From an uncultured bacterium (GTDB lineage Bacteria > Atribacterota > Atribacteria > Atribacterales > Caldatribacteriaceae), in contig CALAIW010000025.1 of assembly GCA_937922705.1 (NCBI GenBank), forward strand, positions 1-55,839: a stretch of 55,839 bases of DNA. The letters are read 5' to 3'. Each line of letters begins with the position of its first letter. The stretch's first letter is position 1. The position numbers were made by a program, and so were the translations under genes. The notes under the pieces are model-generated. The model saw only the letters and a list, made by a program, of their open reading frames with translations, had not been told where the DNA came from and did not search any database. This document shows positions 20,582 through 51,696 of this stretch, one piece after another.

Positions 20582-21751
20582 GTGAGGGTGCATAAAGCCC
20601 AGCGTGAGGTTATTCGGGAGCTTGTCCGACTTTCCCCTTTTGGTAAGAGTTGGGAGGAGAGTGTCCGGAAGCTCCTGGGGTGTGTTTTGCGGATTCCAGA
20701 CGTTCTGGGGCTTCTCTATGTGAGGGAGGGGCAGACCATTGGGGTTGGGGAACTGCCCCTTTCGTTTTCTGTAGAGAGCGCTCCTCGGCGAGGGAAGATT
20801 GGTTTCGTCCGTTTTCGGAAGGTTCCTGTTGCTCCAGGCGCGTATCTTGTCGTCTTCTGGAAAAAGGATGGTTGGGTTTTTCCCTCTCTGGTCCTTTCTC
20901 TCCTCATTGTACTTTTGCGGTTCCTCGAGAGTCTTGAGAACGAGCGAAGGCAGAGGTTATTTCTCCTTAATGGAACTACCGATTTTCTCTTTTTCCTCGA
21001 CAAGGAGGGACGAGTTCTTGAGGTCAATACCCGGGTGGAAGCAATTCTTGGGTGGAAGCGAGAAAGCATCCTGGGAAAGCGAGTTGCGGAGTTCATTGGG
21101 GAAGATGCTTGGTGGATACTCCAGAACAATGGTACGCGGATGGAGCTTGCTCTTTGGGGTGCTTCAGGGCACCTTGTTCATGTTGAGGCGGTTCTTACTC
21201 CCCTTGAGGGGGCGAGCTTTTTCCTCCTTGCTCTTCGAGATATTGGAGAACGGAAGCGTTACGAAGCGGTGCTTTTGCGCTTTGCCCTGTACGACCAACT
21301 TACTGAAGTTTACAACCGTCGCTTCCTTGAGGAGTACTTGCGCAAAGAGCTTGAGCGAACCCGCCGTGAAGGGTATCCTCTAACCCTTATTATGCTCGAC
21401 ATAGACTCGTTTAAGGCCATTAATGACCGCTATGGTCATGTTTTTGGCGATGAGGTGCTCCGCATGGTGGCCCGGGTGCTCCAGGAAAGCCTTCGCTCAA
21501 GCGACGTTGTGGCTCGCTACGGAGGGGATGAGTTTGTGCTTGTGCTTCCCCGAGCAAAAGAGGAGGATGCCCACAAAGTTATGGATAGAGTGAGCAGGAA
21601 CTTGCGGGGAGCGCAGGTCATGGGTGAACCCTTCCCTATTCGGGTTTCCTATGGAGTATGCTCCTGGGATGGCCAAAAGACCCTCTCTGAGCTTTTCCAA
21701 GAAATTGACCAGCGGATGTACGAAATGAAAAAACAGAGGAGTGACGCCTAA
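20582..21751 (+). CDS. PAS-GGDEF diguanylate cyclase
   Basis: A 389-residue signalling enzyme that makes cyclic di-GMP from two GTP. An N-terminal segment (1-85) of unknown fold is followed by a hydrophobic stretch (about 96-113) that may anchor it to the membrane, a PAS domain (about 125-225, ending in a LALRDIGERKRYE-type exit) and a GGDEF domain (230-385). The catalytic motif is intact GGDEF (314-318). RSSD (305-308), exactly five residues before it, is a complete inhibitory I-site, so product feedback is expected. The start is GTG 20582, with no strong ribosome-binding site. It abuts the next gene by one base (TAATG). A predicted c-di-GMP effector lies at 46878-48731. Confidence 0.93.
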   Translation: MRVHKAQREVIRELVRLSPFGKSWEESVRKLLGCVLRIPDVLGLLYVREGQTIGVGELPLSFSVESAPRRGKIGFVRFRKVPVAPGAYLVVFWKKDGWVFPSLVLSLLIVLLRFLESLENERRQRLFLLNGTTDFLFFLDKEGRVLEVNTRVEAILGWKRESILGKRVAEFIGEDAWWILQNNGTRMELALWGASGHLVHVEAVLTPLEGASFFLLALRDIGERKRYEAVLLRFALYDQLTEVYNRRFLEEYLRKELERTRREGYPLTLIMLDIDSFKAINDRYGHVFGDEVLRMVARVLQESLRSSDVVARYGGDEFVLVLPRAKEEDAHKVMDRVSRNLRGAQVMGEPFPIRVSYGVCSWDGQKTLSELFQEIDQRMYEMKKQRSDA

Positions 21752-23924: not shown

Positions 23925-24593
23925 ATGAACGTGAGAAAAATCCTCTTCGGTGTTTTCCTCTTCTTTCTCTTATGCACCGCGGTCTCCTTTGCTCAAGAGA
24001 AACCAAGGGAAATTTTCCTCGAGAGGGCGGAAAAGATTTCCTACGATTCGAAAAACGAGGTTTTCACTGCTTCGGGGAATGTTATTATCGTCCAGGGTGA
24101 AAACCGTATTGAGTGTCAGGACCTTACCTTTGACCTTAAGCTGAATCGGGGTACCTTTCGGGGAGGGATTCGGGTAACGAGAAAAGAAACGGAGATTCGT
24201 GCTCTTACCATGGAGGGAGATTTCGATGCGGAGCTCTATACGTTCTCTGGAGGCGTGGAACTTCGGAAAACCAGGGAAAAGAATGGAGAAACCTCGGTGA
24301 TTCTCTGGAAGGCTGAGACCCTCTCCTACAATGGGAAAAACGAGGAGGCCTGGAGCGAGGGAAGCGTGGTGATTACCTGGAAGGAAGTCCTTCTTCAAGC
24401 CAATCGGGCTCATTACTTTCCCAAGGACGAAACGAGAAACGAAGAGGAACGTGTGGTCCTTGAGGGGAATGTGGTCATCACCGAGAAAGAGCGAGAGATT
24501 GAGGTGGCTCGGGCAGTGTATTTCCTTGATACCGAAGTTCTTGAGGCAGAGGGCATCGCTCGGGCAAAGTTCATTATCAAGGAGAAGGAATGA
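23925..24593 (+). CDS. lptA: LptA/OstA-like periplasmic lipopolysaccharide transport protein
   Basis: A 222-residue exported protein (signal peptide 1-23, ending SFAQ) made of OstA/LptA beta-jellyroll repeats. The motif pattern FLERAEKISYDSKNEVFTASG, then ENRIECQDLTFDL, and a second round (AETLSYNGKNEEAWSEG) is the repeat signature. LptA forms the bridge that carries lipopolysaccharide across the periplasm to LptD. The next gene, starting inside its last codons (ATGA overlap), is LptD-like, which supports the role. LptB, LptC, LptF and LptG are not in the window. This is good evidence for an outer membrane. It could also be called an LptC/LptA hybrid. Confidence 0.85.
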   Translation: MNVRKILFGVFLFFLLCTAVSFAQEKPREIFLERAEKISYDSKNEVFTASGNVIIVQGENRIECQDLTFDLKLNRGTFRGGIRVTRKETEIRALTMEGDFDAELYTFSGGVELRKTREKNGETSVILWKAETLSYNGKNEEAWSEGSVVITWKEVLLQANRAHYFPKDETRNEEERVVLEGNVVITEKEREIEVARAVYFLDTEVLEAEGIARAKFIIKEKE

Positions 24594-45918: not shown

Positions 45919-46881
45919 TCAACATGAGGGGAATCCGCAAAATGCAAGCACCCAGCCCAGAGCGTTCCAGAGAAGGAGTCCAAAAAGCGCGCCCTTTTTG
46001 GGATTTGGGTCAAGGGCGCAGAGAAAGGCAAGAAGGAGGGAAGTAAATGGAGCTACAAGATGGGGGGCAAGAAGAGAAAGTGCAAAAATGCCCCAGAGGA
46101 CTATGGTGTGGGCGATTCCGGAAAAAGAAGCGGCGCAGAGAAGGGGAAGCGCAAGGATAGTACCGTTTTGGGCTTGAACGAGCATTTCCCTCGTTTTGAG
46201 GAATGCTTCAAGGGAAAGCTCTGGATTCCGGAAGGCGGACAGGGCGTATCCCTCATAGACCCAGCCAAAAAAGAGCGACATTCCCTGAAAGACAAGGGAC
46301 GGAAAAAGGGCAAGGGCAGCGAGCGTTCCCCGGCGGTGCAACGGTACCTGGAAGAGGAGGGCCTCGCAGAGCGCAAAGAAGGGCAAAAGCCAAAGCCCAA
46401 AGGGGTGTAAGGAGGTACCAAAACCAAAGGCAAGATTGCCTATGAGAAGCTCCTCGAGAGCATTTTTGGTGGTGCTCTGGAGCATGACAGAAAACCCTAG
46501 GGCAACAAAAAAGGAAAAAAGGGTTAGAGCTGGTCGCATCAAGGCTCCGAAGATATACACTGGGGAGAAGAGGACCAAAAGCGCAGGGAAAAGGTTACGC
46601 CGTCGTGCCCCAAAAAGGAGAAGGGCAAACGCTACACTCCATCCGACAATATGTGGAAAGTACTCGCGGAAAGCTAAGGCCAGGAGAAGGGGGAGTGAAG
46701 GATGGGTGGCAAGGATTCCCTGGGCAGGGTCAGGGAGATACCGAACGGCAAGCGCCCGGAGAAGAAAAAAGCGAGCTTCAGGATGCGAGAAATTCTCCCC
46801 ACGGAGGATAGCGCTTAAACCTAATAAGCTTAAAAATGCTGCAACACCAACGATACCGTATGGTGCACTTTTCTGCCTCAT
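45919..46881 (-). CDS. Polytopic membrane protein of the exopolysaccharide operon
   Basis: A 320-residue protein with about nine hydrophobic segments and short polar loops. FSHPEARFFLLRALAV near residue 31 and the ATHPSLPLLLALAFREYFPHIVGWS stretch resemble the start of GT-C or DUF2723-like transporters or glycosyltransferases, but I cannot name the family. The ATG overlaps the stop of the glycosyltransferase gene by four bases, so it is the last gene of the operon. Likely roles are polymer export or modification; this is inference from position. Confidence 0.65.
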   Translation of the reverse strand: MRQKSAPYGIVGVAAFLSLLGLSAILRGENFSHPEARFFLLRALAVRYLPDPAQGILATHPSLPLLLALAFREYFPHIVGWSVAFALLLFGARRRNLFPALLVLFSPVYIFGALMRPALTLFSFFVALGFSVMLQSTTKNALEELLIGNLAFGFGTSLHPFGLWLLPFFALCEALLFQVPLHRRGTLAALALFPSLVFQGMSLFFGWVYEGYALSAFRNPELSLEAFLKTREMLVQAQNGTILALPLLCAASFSGIAHTIVLWGIFALSLLAPHLVAPFTSLLLAFLCALDPNPKKGALFGLLLWNALGWVLAFCGFPSC

Positions 46882-48731
46882 TGTTTCTTCCCCTTGTGAA
46901 GTCCGTGGACAGTCTTTTCCCAGAAAAAGGGTCGGGAAACGAGCTGTCCAATACCCTTCCAGGCGGCTACACCGGCAAGCATCCAGTAGAGGGGATTTAC
47001 AAGTGCAAAGGGAAGGAGATGATCAAGGTTGCGACGAAAGACGGCAAACATGGAGAAGTACACCCCAAGGAGGTTCCCCACAAAGAGGTTCACTGCACCG
47101 ATGTAGAGCAGTGCTCCCGAGAAGTACGTCCTGAGGAACTCGCTGCGGGTCACAAGCCACCCAAAGAACACCCCCCAGAGAATGAGGGAGGCGGCGTATC
47201 CAAGAGGTGTTCCACCAATGAAAAGCCAGAGAGTGAGGATCCCTCTGATGCCTGAAACCCGAAGGGCATAATAAGGTCTCCGGGTATGCACGAGGAAGGT
47301 CTGAAGGTACCCCTTAAGCCAGCGAGAACGCTGGCGAATCCAGTTTCGAATGTGGCTATTCGCCTCTTCGTACGTTGTGGAGGGAAGGATTCCCACCCGA
47401 AAGCCTCGGTAGTGTGCGCGCATACCAAGGTCGGCATCTTCAGTGACGTTAAAGGGGTCCCATCCACCAAGTGCTCGCAAAGCCTCCGTCCGAAAGTGGT
47501 TCGACGTCCCTCCAAGGGGGATGGGAAGGCGAAGGTGAAAGAGCCCAGGGAGAAGGTAATCAAACCAGAAGGAGTACTCAAGAGTGAAAAGGCGAGTCAG
47601 AATGTTTTGGGTAGGGTTGTAGAAGTTCAAGGCTGCCTGGAGGCAGACGAACTCTTTGGGGAGTTTTGAAAAGGCAACCACGGCTTTTTTAAGCTGGTCT
47701 TTTTCGGGAATGTCTTCCGCATCGTAAATGGTGAGGAATTCCCCTTTGGCAAAGGCAAGGCCAAAGTTGCAAGCCCGGGGTTTTGTTTGTGGTTGTCCTC
47801 GGGGAATAAGGATGAAGCGAACGTTGTACGGAGGATGTGCCTCTTTGCAAGCCCTCAGTGTTTCCGCATCGTCTTCCTCGATGAGAAAGAGAACGTCAAG
47901 CTTTTCTTGAGGGTAATCAAGAGACCGAATGGAGTGGACAAGTTGCTCAATGACCTCTTTAGGCTCCCGATGGAGAGGGAGAAGGATAGTATAAACGGGA
48001 AGGGTGCGAGGGTCAAGAGAAGCAAGGTCTTCTTCGGTAATTGTGACTGACGCAACCGGTGTTGCCCCCTGTATCCCCACGATGGTTTTGAAAAGGACCT
48101 GACCAAAAAAGGCGAGATTCATAATGGCAAAGAGGATACGTAAGGTAGTTTGAGGGGCGAAGAACGTTCCTGCAAGGAGGGTAAAGAGTATCGTGACGAG
48201 TATCCCCCACTGCCAGGGGACAAGAACAGAGGCAGCTGATTCTTCTGGAGCGCGAAAGAAAAGCCCGGTGGTGGCTTCGGCAAGGAAACGCTCCTTGAAG
48301 AAAAAGTGGAGAAGCCAGTCAAGTTCATAAGGAGTTATGAGCGCTTTGCTCACGGATACCCCAGGAAAGGTACGCTTAAGCCAGGCGTCCTGGGCTTCGT
48401 TATCCGGAAAAGGGGTGAGCACCTCGAGGGTTCCATTTGCGATACGACGGGGAAAAAGAGCAAGACGAAGGAGCTCCGAAGGGTTCAAGCGAGAAACAAC
48501 ATTAGGGTCAATGCTTACGAGAAGTTCTGAAAGGTTTCTGCCTGCATAAAGGCGGTTTCCCTGTTCGGCAAGGGCCTCGTAAAGCGTTACTGGATGCACA
48601 AAGCCCCGGGAAATGAGGATTTCTCCAAGGAGCCTTCCACTTTCCCTTTGGAGCCGCAGGGCTTCTTCAAGTTCCTCCCTTTTGAGAATACCCCGAGAAA
48701 CCAGAATTTCCCCAAGAGGCTTCCAGGTCAT
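46878..48731 (-). CDS. Processive family-2 glycosyltransferase with N-terminal MshEN c-di-GMP domain
   Basis: A 617-residue membrane glycosyltransferase. Residues 5-28 and 34-57 are two 24-residue MshEN motifs (PLGEILVSRGILKREELEEA and the rest; LLGEILISRGFVHPVTLYEA and the rest), separated by exactly five residues, matching the published c-di-GMP-binding pattern with L, G, L, L/I, L, L and Q in place. After two membrane helices (near 150-195) the GT2 domain has TILLPLHREP, YDAED (DxD), VTEDADLG and QRSRWLKG, the set found in BcsA-type polymerases; more helices follow. Fusion of MshEN to a GT2 is known from NfrB. The start ATG 48731 overlaps the bcsB-like stop (ATGA). Confidence 0.9.
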   Translation of the reverse strand: MTWKPLGEILVSRGILKREELEEALRLQRESGRLLGEILISRGFVHPVTLYEALAEQGNRLYAGRNLSELLVSIDPNVVSRLNPSELLRLALFPRRIANGTLEVLTPFPDNEAQDAWLKRTFPGVSVSKALITPYELDWLLHFFFKERFLAEATTGLFFRAPEESAASVLVPWQWGILVTILFTLLAGTFFAPQTTLRILFAIMNLAFFGQVLFKTIVGIQGATPVASVTITEEDLASLDPRTLPVYTILLPLHREPKEVIEQLVHSIRSLDYPQEKLDVLFLIEEDDAETLRACKEAHPPYNVRFILIPRGQPQTKPRACNFGLAFAKGEFLTIYDAEDIPEKDQLKKAVVAFSKLPKEFVCLQAALNFYNPTQNILTRLFTLEYSFWFDYLLPGLFHLRLPIPLGGTSNHFRTEALRALGGWDPFNVTEDADLGMRAHYRGFRVGILPSTTYEEANSHIRNWIRQRSRWLKGYLQTFLVHTRRPYYALRVSGIRGILTLWLFIGGTPLGYAASLILWGVFFGWLVTRSEFLRTYFSGALLYIGAVNLFVGNLLGVYFSMFAVFRRNLDHLLPFALVNPLYWMLAGVAAWKGIGQLVSRPFFWEKTVHGLHKGKKQ

Positions 48732-50677
48732 AGGGGCCTTGAACGGATGAGTTTGCGGTACAGTGTAAGGCACCACCCAAGGAGGACAACACAAGCACCA
48801 GCAAAGAGAAGCAACCTCCAGCGTAAAAAAGCCTCTTCAAGAGAAGAGGTGGTACTCAGGGAAACGCGTGTTTCTCCCCACCCTCCTGGGGTAAAGATTG
48901 CCACATTTCCTACCATGCGGCGAAGGGTCTCGGCTCCCCTAAAGTGTTTCAAGAAAGCACTGTAGGCGAGGTCTCTGCGTCCAATGGGAGTAAAGACAAG
49001 AGCTGGTTTCCCAGAGATTCTTTGAGCGATAAGAACTCCTCCTGGAGTATCAGGAGCAAGGGCAAAGGTTTCAAGACCTGGGAGAGGGGCAAGGACGAGG
49101 GTTTCGCTTCTGCGGAGGGCAGGAGTTGGTGAGGGTAGCATACCCTCTCGGTCCACGACAAGGAAGTACTCTTGCAGCACAAGAGGTGGGGTGAGGAGGA
49201 ATCGAAAATCCAGCTCTTTCAGGGCTTTAAGGAGAGAAGGAAGAGAAAAAGGCGGGAACTTCTTCCGTCTTTCAGGGATGGTATGTACCACTTCAAGGAC
49301 AAGGGGAGTTGTGTCAATCTCCCGAAGGGCACTGTAGAGTCGTGCCACAACCTCGATTTCCTCGAGGGAAGGCTTTTCAGGAAGAACAACCCAGGCCTTT
49401 CCAGAGAACAAGGTGGGGGCATCGGCAAAGGTTACGGTGTCCGGGGTTGCCCTGAAAGTGCCGGAGAAATACGACTGCTCAAAAATTGTGGCCTCAAAGG
49501 GCATGGTCCCTCTTCTGCACTCACCCACTTCTGGGAAGTATGCAAAAACGATGTCCAAAGTATTTTCTCGCCCGAGGAGCCTTGGAGGGAGGAAAATAAC
49601 CTCTCTTTCGATACCCTTTTGGGTTTTCTTGAGAATCTTTCGAGTGCAAACAAGGGTATTGTTGAGGAACACTTTAAGAAATACCTCACTTTTTGGGGTT
49701 TCCGGAAGAGGTGTGCTTGAGAAGAAGAGGTTGAGGGAAAGAGATGCCGGAATACCTCCAAGATCTGCAAGGGTAAAATACACCCTTTGCCTGAGTTCCC
49801 CAATGCCCCGGAGGGTTGTGCTTCGCATTCCAAAGTCTTGGAGGGTACGCTTTCTCTCAAAAAAGAGGGGCAGGCTCCGGACTTTAAAAGAACGGCCGGC
49901 AAAGAGGGGGAGCTCGGCGAGAACCCCTTGCACTCCCTGAGGGGTAAGGTACAGGGTAAATCCAAGCAGCTCTACGTCTCGAAGGGCTTTCTCCCGAAGG
50001 ATAATACGGAGCTCCTTGGCGTCTTCTCTTTCAGGAAGTCTTAAGGGAAGCATTTCGGTAACGACTTCCCGCCGGATGCGGCGAAGAAAGGCAAAGAGTT
50101 TGAGATACGCCGCAAGGAGTTCTTTTGAGGGGGAATCTTTAGGGAGGAAAACGCGAATACGTGATGCGGGGAAACGGAAAAAATCTCGGACCGTCCAGTT
50201 TGCTACACCGAGGTCGGTAACGAGGGAACTTATTGCACGGATACGAACAAAGAGGTCTTGGGAGAGAAGGTCCTCACAGAGATTCTCGCTTCTTTGCAAG
50301 CTTCCCCGGACTTCAATTCGGATAAGGTCTTTGAGAGGCAATCCCTCAAGGGGGGCAAGAGAGATTCTCGCGCGGTGCTCTCCAGGGCGAATTTCCCAGG
50401 AGGAAAGGAGTATGCCTTCGGCAGAGACAGAAAGGGTTGCACCACGAGAGAGAGCAGGAGAGGCAACATACTCAAGAAGGAGTGCCGTGTCTTTAGGGCG
50501 CATCCCGGGTAAGACCGGAAGATACAGAGAAAGAGACGGTGCTGGTCCCTCAAGAACAAAATCTTCGGTGATGCCAGTGATTTCCTGAAGCGTCCAGGAA
50601 AAAGGCGTTGTTTTTCCCTCGCCGTGCCCGAAAAGCAAAAAAAGAAGTACCCCCAAGAGAAGGATGGCACGTCTCAC
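48728..50677 (-). CDS. BcsB-like periplasmic polysaccharide synthase subunit
   Basis: A 649-residue protein with a signal peptide (1-21), a large periplasmic part and a single C-terminal transmembrane helix (about 622-642, RWRLLLFAGACVVLLGWCLTLY). BcsB surrounds the nascent glucan and guides it through the periplasm. The first domain (DTALLLEYVASPALSRGATLSVSAEGILLSSW) and the repeat pattern of carbohydrate-binding-like and flavodoxin-like domains match BcsB. It overlaps both neighbours by four bases (GTGA with the isomerase gene, ATGA with the glycosyltransferase gene). No BcsC, BcsZ or PilZ gene is near. Confidence 0.82.
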   Translation of the reverse strand: MRRAILLLGVLLFLLFGHGEGKTTPFSWTLQEITGITEDFVLEGPAPSLSLYLPVLPGMRPKDTALLLEYVASPALSRGATLSVSAEGILLSSWEIRPGEHRARISLAPLEGLPLKDLIRIEVRGSLQRSENLCEDLLSQDLFVRIRAISSLVTDLGVANWTVRDFFRFPASRIRVFLPKDSPSKELLAAYLKLFAFLRRIRREVVTEMLPLRLPEREDAKELRIILREKALRDVELLGFTLYLTPQGVQGVLAELPLFAGRSFKVRSLPLFFERKRTLQDFGMRSTTLRGIGELRQRVYFTLADLGGIPASLSLNLFFSSTPLPETPKSEVFLKVFLNNTLVCTRKILKKTQKGIEREVIFLPPRLLGRENTLDIVFAYFPEVGECRRGTMPFEATIFEQSYFSGTFRATPDTVTFADAPTLFSGKAWVVLPEKPSLEEIEVVARLYSALREIDTTPLVLEVVHTIPERRKKFPPFSLPSLLKALKELDFRFLLTPPLVLQEYFLVVDREGMLPSPTPALRRSETLVLAPLPGLETFALAPDTPGGVLIAQRISGKPALVFTPIGRRDLAYSAFLKHFRGAETLRRMVGNVAIFTPGGWGETRVSLSTTSSLEEAFLRWRLLLFAGACVVLLGWCLTLYRKLIRSRPL

Positions 50678-51696
50678 GGTTTTCTCCCTCCTTCGAAGCT
50701 ACATTCAAGTCTTCTCAGAAGCCACTTGAAGTGCGTGACTATTGGGATACGCTCGATATCTTCAGTGTGTATCTGAGCAAGGTGGATACTCAACCAGTCT
50801 CCAAAAGCCACAAGGGATAGGGCACGGCACAAGGATGACGTTCCCTGTGCCCAGACTTCAAAAGTTTTGATACCCCTTTTTGCCACATGCTTGAGGTACA
50901 TTCGGGCCATAGTGGTGCAGCAACTTGGTTCTTCTGGATCGTGGAGGAACACAAAGGCAAGAGGCAGAGCCTCGGGGTGGAGAAAGGCAACGATTTCGTT
51001 GTGCATGGCTTCAGGAATGGTACTGGCAAAGGCTACGTGCTTAGCATTTTCGTTGCACTGAGTTTTGTAGCGCCAGGCGACACAATCTGTATAGTGCTCG
51101 ATGCCTATAAAGACGGGAATGAGGTTGGCCATCTCCTGGGCCATCTGGTAGGGAAGGCCTTGAGAGGAAGCGTAGGTAGGAATGACTGCCTGAAGGTGAT
51201 TTTGTGTTTCTTCAAGGTCTTGAGAAAAAGAGAGGAAAGGGAAAAGTGCTTCGAGAGCTCCAAGGATTCCACCGACTATGTACCCTAAGGCAAAGCGAGG
51301 TTGCAGTCCCCCAGGAAGGCGTACAAAGATGTCTCTGTCTTCCTTCTCCTTTTCCAGCTTTCCTCCCTGGGAGAGGAGAAGGAGCAATGCCCCTCGTTTG
51401 CGTGCTTCCCGAGCGAGGGCAAGGGTTTCTTCCGTATTCCCCGAGTACGTAGAGGCTATACACAGGGTGTTCTCGTTCACCCAGGCGGGAAGTGGTGGAG
51501 AGGAAACAGTAAGGAAAGGAAAAGAAAGAAGTGGTTCAAGGATACGTGCGAGGATTTTCCCACCAATCCCTGATCCTCCGATACCACAAAAGAGCACAGC
51601 CTTTGGCGCATGCAAAAGAGATCCTGAAACGGCTTCTTTGCCTCTTTGGTATCCCTCAAGGAGCTCTTCAGGGAAAGCACGAAGAATTGCTTCCAT
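50674..51696 (-). CDS. Bifunctional phosphoglucose/phosphomannose isomerase
   Basis: A 340-residue SIS-fold isomerase of the bifunctional PGI/PMI family, which interconverts glucose 6-phosphate or mannose 6-phosphate with fructose 6-phosphate. FCGIGGSGIGG (about 37-47), STYSGNTEETL (82-92) and NENAKHVAFASTIPEAMHNEI, with the conserved glutamate and histidine, are diagnostic. It heads the exopolysaccharide operon and would supply its hexose phosphates. The start is ATG 51696; the ribosome-binding site GGAAAGGGGGG sits inside one arm of a 16-bp inverted repeat, so its translation may be controlled by RNA structure. The start at 51699 (TTG) is less likely. Confidence 0.88.
   Translation of the reverse strand: MEAILRAFPEELLEGYQRGKEAVSGSLLHAPKAVLFCGIGGSGIGGKILARILEPLLSFPFLTVSSPPLPAWVNENTLCIASTYSGNTEETLALAREARKRGALLLLLSQGGKLEKEKEDRDIFVRLPGGLQPRFALGYIVGGILGALEALFPFLSFSQDLEETQNHLQAVIPTYASSQGLPYQMAQEMANLIPVFIGIEHYTDCVAWRYKTQCNENAKHVAFASTIPEAMHNEIVAFLHPEALPLAFVFLHDPEEPSCCTTMARMYLKHVAKRGIKTFEVWAQGTSSLCRALSLVAFGDWLSIHLAQIHTEDIERIPIVTHFKWLLRRLECSFEGGRKP

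What the first reader, a model, noticed from the sequence alone, without database searches (positions are those of the whole stretch)
45919..51696. c-di-GMP-controlled exopolysaccharide operon with MshEN in place of PilZ
Four genes joined by 4-base overlaps encode hexose-phosphate isomerase, a BcsB-like protein, a BcsA-type GT2 and a polytopic membrane protein. The GT2 has no PilZ domain; its N-terminus carries two complete MshEN motifs with the 5-residue spacer. A BcsB-type partner with an MshEN polymerase and no outer-membrane BcsC looks like an intermediate between cellulose synthase and the NfrAB system. The diguanylate cyclase at 20582 is a possible supplier of the signal.
Basis: partly seen in the sequence, partly recalled or inferred. 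Interest (0 to 1): 0.7.

Follow-up and report, generated by a model that had tools for sequence, protein, structure and literature searches.

The report
c-di-GMP-switched polysaccharide synthase operon
A heat-loving Caldatribacterium carries a four-gene kit for making a surface sugar polymer, built like cellulose synthase but with a different on-switch for the signal c-di-GMP and probably fed with mannose rather than glucose; the layout is shared by many bacterial phyla and is a variant of known systems, not a new class.

Summary
On the minus strand, PGI/PMI (51696-50674), a BcsB-like protein (50677-48728), a GT2 (48731-46878) and a polytopic membrane protein (46881-45919) are joined by three 4-base overlaps. 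The GT2 has no PilZ domain and carries an N-terminal MshEN domain (NCBIfam NF053729, 66 bits, cut-off 38). 'Complete motifs' is slightly overstated: the leading Arg of both motifs is replaced (P5, L34). Published binders tolerate both changes (E. coli NfrB, Thermus PilF). The BcsB partner is confirmed by Pfam and by predicted fold (22 best PDB hits all BcsB). The 'intermediate between cellulose synthase and NfrAB' idea fails: the catalytic core resembles BcsA, not NfrB, and MshEN sits at the opposite end. BcsB plus this synthase recurs in several phyla, and published sfz and bcsB-xagBCD iron-stalk clusters have the same layout. New points: (1) the only GDP-mannose pyrophosphorylase of several genomes lies beside this locus, so the product is probably a mannan or glucomannan, not cellulose; (2) the polytopic protein is probably a GT-C (GT39/PMT-like) glycosyltransferase; (3) a sister genus replaces BcsB with a ~105-residue protein keeping little more than the BcsB tail anchor, the part known to suffice for BcsA activity in vitro.

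The parts
50674..51696 (-). Bifunctional phosphoglucose/phosphomannose isomerase-like protein (340 aa; SIS + bact-PGI_C); supplies hexose phosphate, probably mannose-6-phosphate
   Evidence: PF10432 120.5 bits, PF01380 28.2 bits; best NCBIfam NF006426 210.5 bits, below its cut-off 295; only PF10432 protein of the genome, with a separate PF00342 PGI match elsewhere; stays next to BcsB in other genera of the family (L039, L051)
48728..50677 (-). BcsB-like periplasmic co-polymerase (649 aa): signal peptide, periplasmic part, C-terminal tail-anchor helix 612-645
   Evidence: PF03170 43.9 bits over cut-off 21; AlphaFold2 pLDDT 78.6; 22 best Foldseek PDB hits all BcsB, best E 3.5e-29, TM about 0.6; family HMM hits E. 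coli BcsB at 1.9e-17
46878..48731 (-). GT2 polysaccharide synthase (617 aa) with N-terminal MshEN c-di-GMP domain and BcsA-like catalytic core
48561..48719 (-). MshEN_N c-di-GMP motif pair, residues 5-57: motif I 5-28, spacer 29-33, motif II 34-57
   Evidence: NF053729 whole-model match, residues 5-57; placed at G000:C25:48561-48719; residue table
48297..48518 (-). MshEN_C subdomain, residues 72-145
   Evidence: PF05157 27.6 bits
47313..48014 (-). GT2 catalytic core, about residues 240-473: DAED 337-340, TED 430-432, QRSRW 467-471
   Evidence: motifs conserved in Atribacterota relatives
45919..46881 (-). Polytopic membrane protein (320 aa), probable GT-C (GT39/PMT-like) glycosyltransferase, short form
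   Evidence: no Pfam hit itself; homologue L067 PMT_2 25.2 bits, cut-off 26.1; Geobacillus counterpart in the syntenic position annotated GT39; GT2-PMT_2 fusion in L096, 27.2 bits; model pLDDT 87, Foldseek hits with probability above 0.5 in the listed rows are GT-C enzymes, none with E<0.05
20582..21751 (+).
   Evidence: PF00990 163.9 bits; intact GGDEF; one of eight in the genome

Best explanation
The operon encodes a synthase-dependent exopolysaccharide machine. Shown by sequence or model: a processive-type GT2 with a BcsA-like core and an N-terminal MshEN domain, a BcsB-fold partner, a GT-C-like polytopic protein (weaker), and a hexose-phosphate isomerase, in one overlapping gene run. Inferred: c-di-GMP binds MshEN residues 5-57 and releases the GT2 from an inhibited state, doing the job PilZ does in BcsA. 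The GT2 polymerises and translocates the chain, with the BcsB tail anchor packed against its membrane helices and the BcsB periplasmic lobes receiving the chain. The sugar donor is most likely GDP-mannose (F6P to M6P by the operon's PGI/PMI, then ManC encoded elsewhere), giving a mannan or glucomannan. The GT-C protein may add side sugars outside the membrane.
For: MshEN well above cut-off, with both leading-residue substitutions precedented in measured binders: Leu as in PilF GSPII-B, KD 6 nM, and Pro as in PilF GSPII-C, about 500 nM (PMC11731258); Pro at the same place in E. coli NfrB (sequence), KD 1 uM (PMC8669469). BcsB by Pfam, HMM and fold. Processive GT2 motifs conserved. BcsB / GT2 / polytopic recurs in Atribacterota, Bacillota, Desulfobacterota, Chloroflexota, Cyanobacteria, Actinomycetota and Bacteroidota, with a weaker third gene in Synergistota. 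GDP-mannose: the only guanylyltransferase-type ManC found in the Atribacterota genomes G001, G005, G009, G010, in Anoxybacillus (G050) and in a Synergistaceae MAG (G051) lies next to this locus, in several with a mannose-6-phosphate isomerase; in Legionella one of two copies does. A Geobacillus conjugative plasmid carries sugar-phosphate nucleotidyltransferase / BcsB / GT2 / GT39 in order. c-di-GMP enzymes adjoin or lie near relatives L076 and L046, and eight GGDEF proteins exist in the window's genome.
Against: No binding or activity is measured. Both leading Arg of MshEN are gone, and relatives lose Gly14 (family f2) or Gln57 (genus g3). In the window's own genome ManC is not in the operon (C23), and the PGI/PMI could simply interconvert glucose- and fructose-6-phosphate. 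No outer-membrane exporter was found although an LptA-like gene in the window points to a two-membrane envelope. The candidate GT-C acid is not invariant and the structural match is weak.
Confidence: 0.65

Rival explanations
1. Same machine, but it makes a glucan (cellulose-like or mixed-linkage) from UDP-glucose; the isomerase serves as PGI and the ManC neighbours in relatives belong to other pathways.
For: The catalytic core is nearest to BcsA among characterised models (TIGR03030 64 bits); the PGI activity of this isomerase family gives glucose-6-phosphate.
Against: Single-copy ManC, with or without PMI, beside the locus in separate lineages; cellulose models miss their cut-off by far (64 versus 699 bits); no BcsC; the genome has another PGI-family protein.
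Confidence: 0.2
2. The MshEN domain no longer binds c-di-GMP and serves as a structural or protein-docking module; the operon is controlled by other means.
For: Both leading Arg lost; relatives lose Gly14 or Gln57; XpsE shows MshEN domains can lose binding (PMC5013675); MshEN scores poorly or not at all in Bacteroidota members of the BcsB-linked group.
Against: Nearly all other consensus positions intact in the window protein; L34 and P5 both occur in measured binders; the position-3 Gly and the Leu cluster are kept in the genus.
Confidence: 0.12
3. An evolutionary intermediate between cellulose synthase and NfrAB.
For: It combines BcsB with an MshEN-GT2; in Achromobacter a BcsB homologue lies in the nfr cluster (PMC8669472).
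Against: The GT core does not match NfrB and MshEN lies at the other end; the synthase groups with its own multi-phylum relatives; NF008411 31.9 versus 1170 bits, and only over MshEN.
Confidence: 0.03

Closest known systems
sfz1-sfz2-sfz3 stalk cluster of Zetaproteobacteria / bcsB-xagBCD of Ferriphaselus (PMC8250860, PMC4643136)
   Same: BcsB-family gene followed by a GT2 with an N-terminal T2SSE_N domain (IPR007831, the MshEN domain) and TED and QxxRW motifs, then further genes of unknown function
   Different: Those authors read the domain as EpsE-like and looked for RxxD/RxxxR motifs, not MshEN binding; an sfz4 GH10-like gene follows there; no PGI/PMI or ManC link reported in the passages read; protein homology was not tested here
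BcsA-BcsB cellulose synthase
   Same: BcsA-like GT2 core motifs, BcsB fold with signal peptide and tail anchor
   Different: MshEN instead of PilZ; scores far below cellulose models; no BcsC; associated sugar enzymes point to mannose
NfrB-NfrA (N4 glycan receptor system) of E. coli
   Same: GT2 with an MshEN c-di-GMP domain
   Different: MshEN is C-terminal, GT core not matched at this sensitivity, outer-membrane NfrA and WecB/ManNAc supply, no BcsB in the E. coli nfr operon
XagB of Xanthomonas
   Same: Named in the literature as the relative of the BcsB-linked GT2s of stalk formers; needed for biofilm (PMC3609779)
MshEN / PilF GSPII domains of pilus and secretion ATPases
   Same: 53-residue double motif with 5-residue spacer; L34 as in PilF GSPII-B L196, P5 as in PilF GSPII-C P335
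   Different: Fused to a glycosyltransferase, not to an ATPase

Membership tests
MshEN c-di-GMP domain | Two 24-residue motifs with 5-residue spacer, family model over cut-off | tested here: met
   NF053729 66.2 bits, cut-off 38; spacer RESGR; residue table
MshEN c-di-GMP domain | Leading residue R, K or L in each motif (extended consensus, PMC11731258) | tested here: inconclusive
   Motif II L34 fits; motif I P5 does not, but Pro is found in E. coli NfrB and PilF GSPII-C, both binders
MshEN c-di-GMP domain | Binds c-di-GMP | not testable with these tools
   needs ITC or DRaCALA
BcsB family (PF03170) | Pfam gathering score and BcsB fold | tested here: met
   43.9 versus 21 bits; fold, E 3.5e-29
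BcsB family (PF03170) | N-terminal signal helix and C-terminal tail anchor | tested here: met
   helix 2-16 and helix 612-645 in the model; conserved tail
Cellulose synthase BcsA | GT2 motifs: second acid motif, TED, QxxRW | tested here: met
   DAED, TED, QRSRW
Cellulose synthase BcsA | C-terminal PilZ domain | tested here: not met
   no PilZ in the protein
Cellulose synthase BcsA | Family model TIGR03030 over cut-off | tested here: not met
   64.2 versus 699.1 bits
NfrB | NF008411 over cut-off, GT core homologous, MshEN C-terminal | tested here: not met
   31.9 versus 1170 bits, only over MshEN; GT core of E. coli NfrB not matched
Sfz/Xag-type BcsB + T2SSE_N-GT2 cluster | BcsB gene directly upstream of a GT2 with N-terminal MshEN/T2SSE_N | tested here: met
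   against the description in PMC8250860
Sfz/Xag-type BcsB + T2SSE_N-GT2 cluster | Protein homology with Sfz1-3 / XagB-D | not tested
   no Zetaproteobacterial or Xanthomonas sequence was fetched
Sfz/Xag-type BcsB + T2SSE_N-GT2 cluster | Following glycoside hydrolase-like gene (Sfz4) | tested here: not met
   the next gene is parA-like (45882-45100)
GT-C / GT39 (PMT) glycosyltransferase, fourth gene | Family model over cut-off | tested here: inconclusive
   window protein no hit; homologue L067 25.2 versus 26.1; L096 fusion 27.2; Geobacillus counterpart in the same position annotated GT39
Bifunctional phosphoglucose/phosphomannose isomerase | PF10432 over cut-off; NCBIfam subfamily cut-off | tested here: inconclusive
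   PF10432 120.5 versus 24.5, met; NF006426 210.5 versus 295, not met

The most novel reading that the evidence does not exclude
A multi-phylum family of BcsB-partnered synthases that make a GDP-mannose-derived polymer under MshEN/c-di-GMP control, decorated by a GT-C enzyme, in which one Atribacterota genus has reduced BcsB to little more than its tail anchor: a natural version of the minimal BcsA-BcsB(tail anchor) synthase known from reconstitution.
Probability: 0.45. Interest if true: 0.68.

Novelty: new variant of a known kind. Interest (0 to 1): 0.5.

Why it matters
If right, c-di-GMP control of BcsA/BcsB-type synthases exists in two designs (PilZ and N-terminal MshEN), the second spread over many phyla but mostly annotated as a plain glycosyltransferase next to a 'cellulose' BcsB gene. 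Such operons would then be misread as cellulose when the sugar enzymes beside them point to mannose. The tail-anchor-only BcsB of the sister genus makes the question of what BcsB must do directly testable. It also proposes a c-di-GMP output for the Atribacterota, which have almost no genetics.

Tried and rejected
Intermediate-with-NfrAB reading: rejected. The DGC at 20582 as dedicated supplier: no evidence. Phylogeny (FastTree, rooted on E. coli BcsA): used only to see that BcsB-linked members group together; deep branches not relied on. An iterated HMM for the polytopic gene drifted into GT2s (151 hits) and was replaced by a model built from the polytopic proteins alone. Promoter/terminator scan: not clearly above shuffles. 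PDB phmmer with the BcsB-like protein gave nothing, which only the fold search overcame. The unlinked BcsB-like paralogues of genera g5 and g8 have no GT2 of this family beside them, so I did not assign them to this machine. Literature searches for BcsB with mannan and for Caldatribacterium exopolysaccharide found nothing. The motif script stopped before its last part, so only the Atribacterota rows of that table were used.
Full report
What is there. The window is from a Caldatribacterium-like member of the Atribacterota (best named relative Ca. Caldatribacterium saccharofermentans). Four genes on the minus strand overlap by four bases each: 51696-50674 (340 aa), 50677-48728 (649 aa), 48731-46878 (617 aa) and 46881-45919 (320 aa). 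Downstream lies a parA-like gene (45882-45100); upstream, after a 60-base gap, come a GH31 hydrolase and two ABC permeases.

The synthase. The GT2 has the processive-type motifs (DAED, TED, QRSRW), unchanged in the Atribacterota relatives that cover them. It has no PilZ. Its residues 5-57 match NCBI's MshE-related c-di-GMP motif domain at 66 bits against a cut-off of 38, and residues 72-145 match Pfam MshEN. The 5-residue spacer is exact. Compared with the published consensus, the leading Arg is replaced in both motifs (P5, L34); the other scored positions agree apart from a conservative Phe at 44, which the V. cholerae form of the motif also allows. Wang et al. report that changes at Arg9, Asp12 and Gln32 alter affinity no more than about fivefold, while changes in Gly11 and the Leu cluster are severe (PMC5013675). 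In Thermus PilF, GSPII-B has Lys and Leu at the leading positions and binds with 6 nM, and GSPII-C, whose stated deviation is a Pro at this position, binds at about 500 nM (PMC11731258). E. coli NfrB, a measured binder (KD 1 uM, PMC8669469), also has Pro at motif I (sequence). Binding is therefore likely but not shown.

The partner. The 649-aa protein passes the Pfam BcsB cut-off. An AlphaFold2 model (pLDDT 78.6) matches BcsB chains of the solved cellulose synthase complexes in all 22 best hits, best E 3.5e-29, TM about 0.6 for most. A family profile also hits E. coli BcsB at 1.9e-17.

The fourth protein. It has no Pfam hit itself. A homologue reaches the edge of the PMT_2 cut-off (25.2 versus 26.1); in a Ktedonobacterales protein a PMT_2 region (27.2 bits) is fused behind the GT2; the protein in the same operon position on a Geobacillus plasmid is annotated GT39. 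Its own model is confident (pLDDT 87), and among the listed structural matches those with probability above 0.5 are GT-C enzymes, but none reaches E<0.05. GT-C is likely; catalytic activity is uncertain because the candidate acid is not invariant.

Distribution. In the phylum, 18 of 50 genomes have the synthase and 20 of 50 a BcsB-like protein. Across named genomes, BcsB plus this synthase occurs in Bacillota, Desulfobacterota, Synergistota, Chloroflexota, Cyanobacteria, Actinomycetota and Bacteroidota; MshEN is clear in most of these, weak or displaced in Cyanobacteria, and weak or absent in Bacteroidota.

The sugar. In family f2 of the order a mannose-1-phosphate guanylyltransferase lies next to the synthase or its partner, in several genomes with a mannose-6-phosphate isomerase. 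In six genomes checked, from three phyla, it is the only such gene found in the genome (Legionella has two, one of them here). With one copy in 1.9-3.3 Mb, a position within 3 kb by chance is roughly 0.2% per independent lineage (my arithmetic). The Geobacillus plasmid shows a sugar-phosphate nucleotidyltransferase in the same operon. In the window's family the isomerase gene takes that place and ManC is encoded elsewhere. The economical reading is a GDP-mannose-using synthase; linkage alone cannot tell mannan from glucomannan.

A reduced BcsB. In genus g5 the gene overlapping the synthase is a 103-108 aa protein with a signal peptide and a C-terminal helix (seen in L041-L044, L047, L048). That helix matches a profile of BcsB tails (E 3e-6 to 7e-5; no shuffled control among the listed top hits), and aligns to the BcsB tail of L058 with a score no shuffle reached (67 versus best 44 in 10,000). 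The genome search also picked up this stretch as the BcsB C-terminus (G006:C171). Cellulose synthesis in vitro needs only BcsA and the BcsB tail anchor (PMC11470070). This is good natural support that the pair works like BcsA-BcsB. Most of the same genomes keep an unlinked full-length BcsB-like gene of unknown role, which could act in trans.

Relation to known systems. The layout equals that described for the stalk clusters sfz1-sfz2 (PMC8250860) and bcsB-xagBCD (PMC4643136); the passages read do not identify the domain as MshEN. NfrB shares the domain, not the core at this sensitivity, and carries it at the other end. The finding is therefore a variant of synthase-dependent, c-di-GMP-controlled polysaccharide systems.

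Limits. No experiment was done. Relatives from MAGs may be incomplete. The absence of an outer-membrane exporter rests on one BcsC profile and on the operon's content. Homology to Sfz2 or XagB is taken from the published descriptions and was not tested.

Noticed in passing
L042:10282-10593, L047:9529-9855, L044:2830-3156, L041:10715-11026, L048:4072-4383: In one Atribacterota genus the BcsB gene upstream of the MshEN-GT2 is replaced by a 103-108 aa protein with signal peptide and BcsB-like tail anchor only: a natural minimal BcsB.
   Followed up: partly
L145:7756-10008, L146:7140-9392, L147:5257-7437: Unlinked 726-750 aa BcsB-like proteins in a conserved neighbourhood without a GT2 of this family; role unknown.
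   Followed up: partly
L073:1-2781, L075:5844-9857: Dehalococcoidia synthases carry tandem arrays of three to six MshEN stretches in front of the GT2, possibly a graded or high-affinity c-di-GMP sensor.
   Followed up: no
L149 (CP128455.1, 33746-40483): A nucleotidyltransferase-BcsB-GT2-GT39 operon lies on a conjugative plasmid of Geobacillus stearothermophilus, so the system can move horizontally.
   Followed up: partly
L096:7572-11318, L113:7719-11219: Ktedonobacterales proteins fuse the GT2 with the GT-C-like membrane protein.
   Followed up: no
L076:9943-11763 and L046:3493-7740: c-di-GMP enzymes (GAF-GGDEF-EAL; PAS-GGDEF-HD) lie next to or near relatives of the operon.
   Followed up: no
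L067:4433-5971, L047, L044, L046, L069: The only GDP-mannose pyrophosphorylase found in several genomes sits beside this locus.
   Followed up: yes
window 23925-24593: LptA/LptD_N-like gene (PF03968 45 bits), in line with a two-membrane envelope; makes the missing outer-membrane exporter a real question.
   Followed up: no
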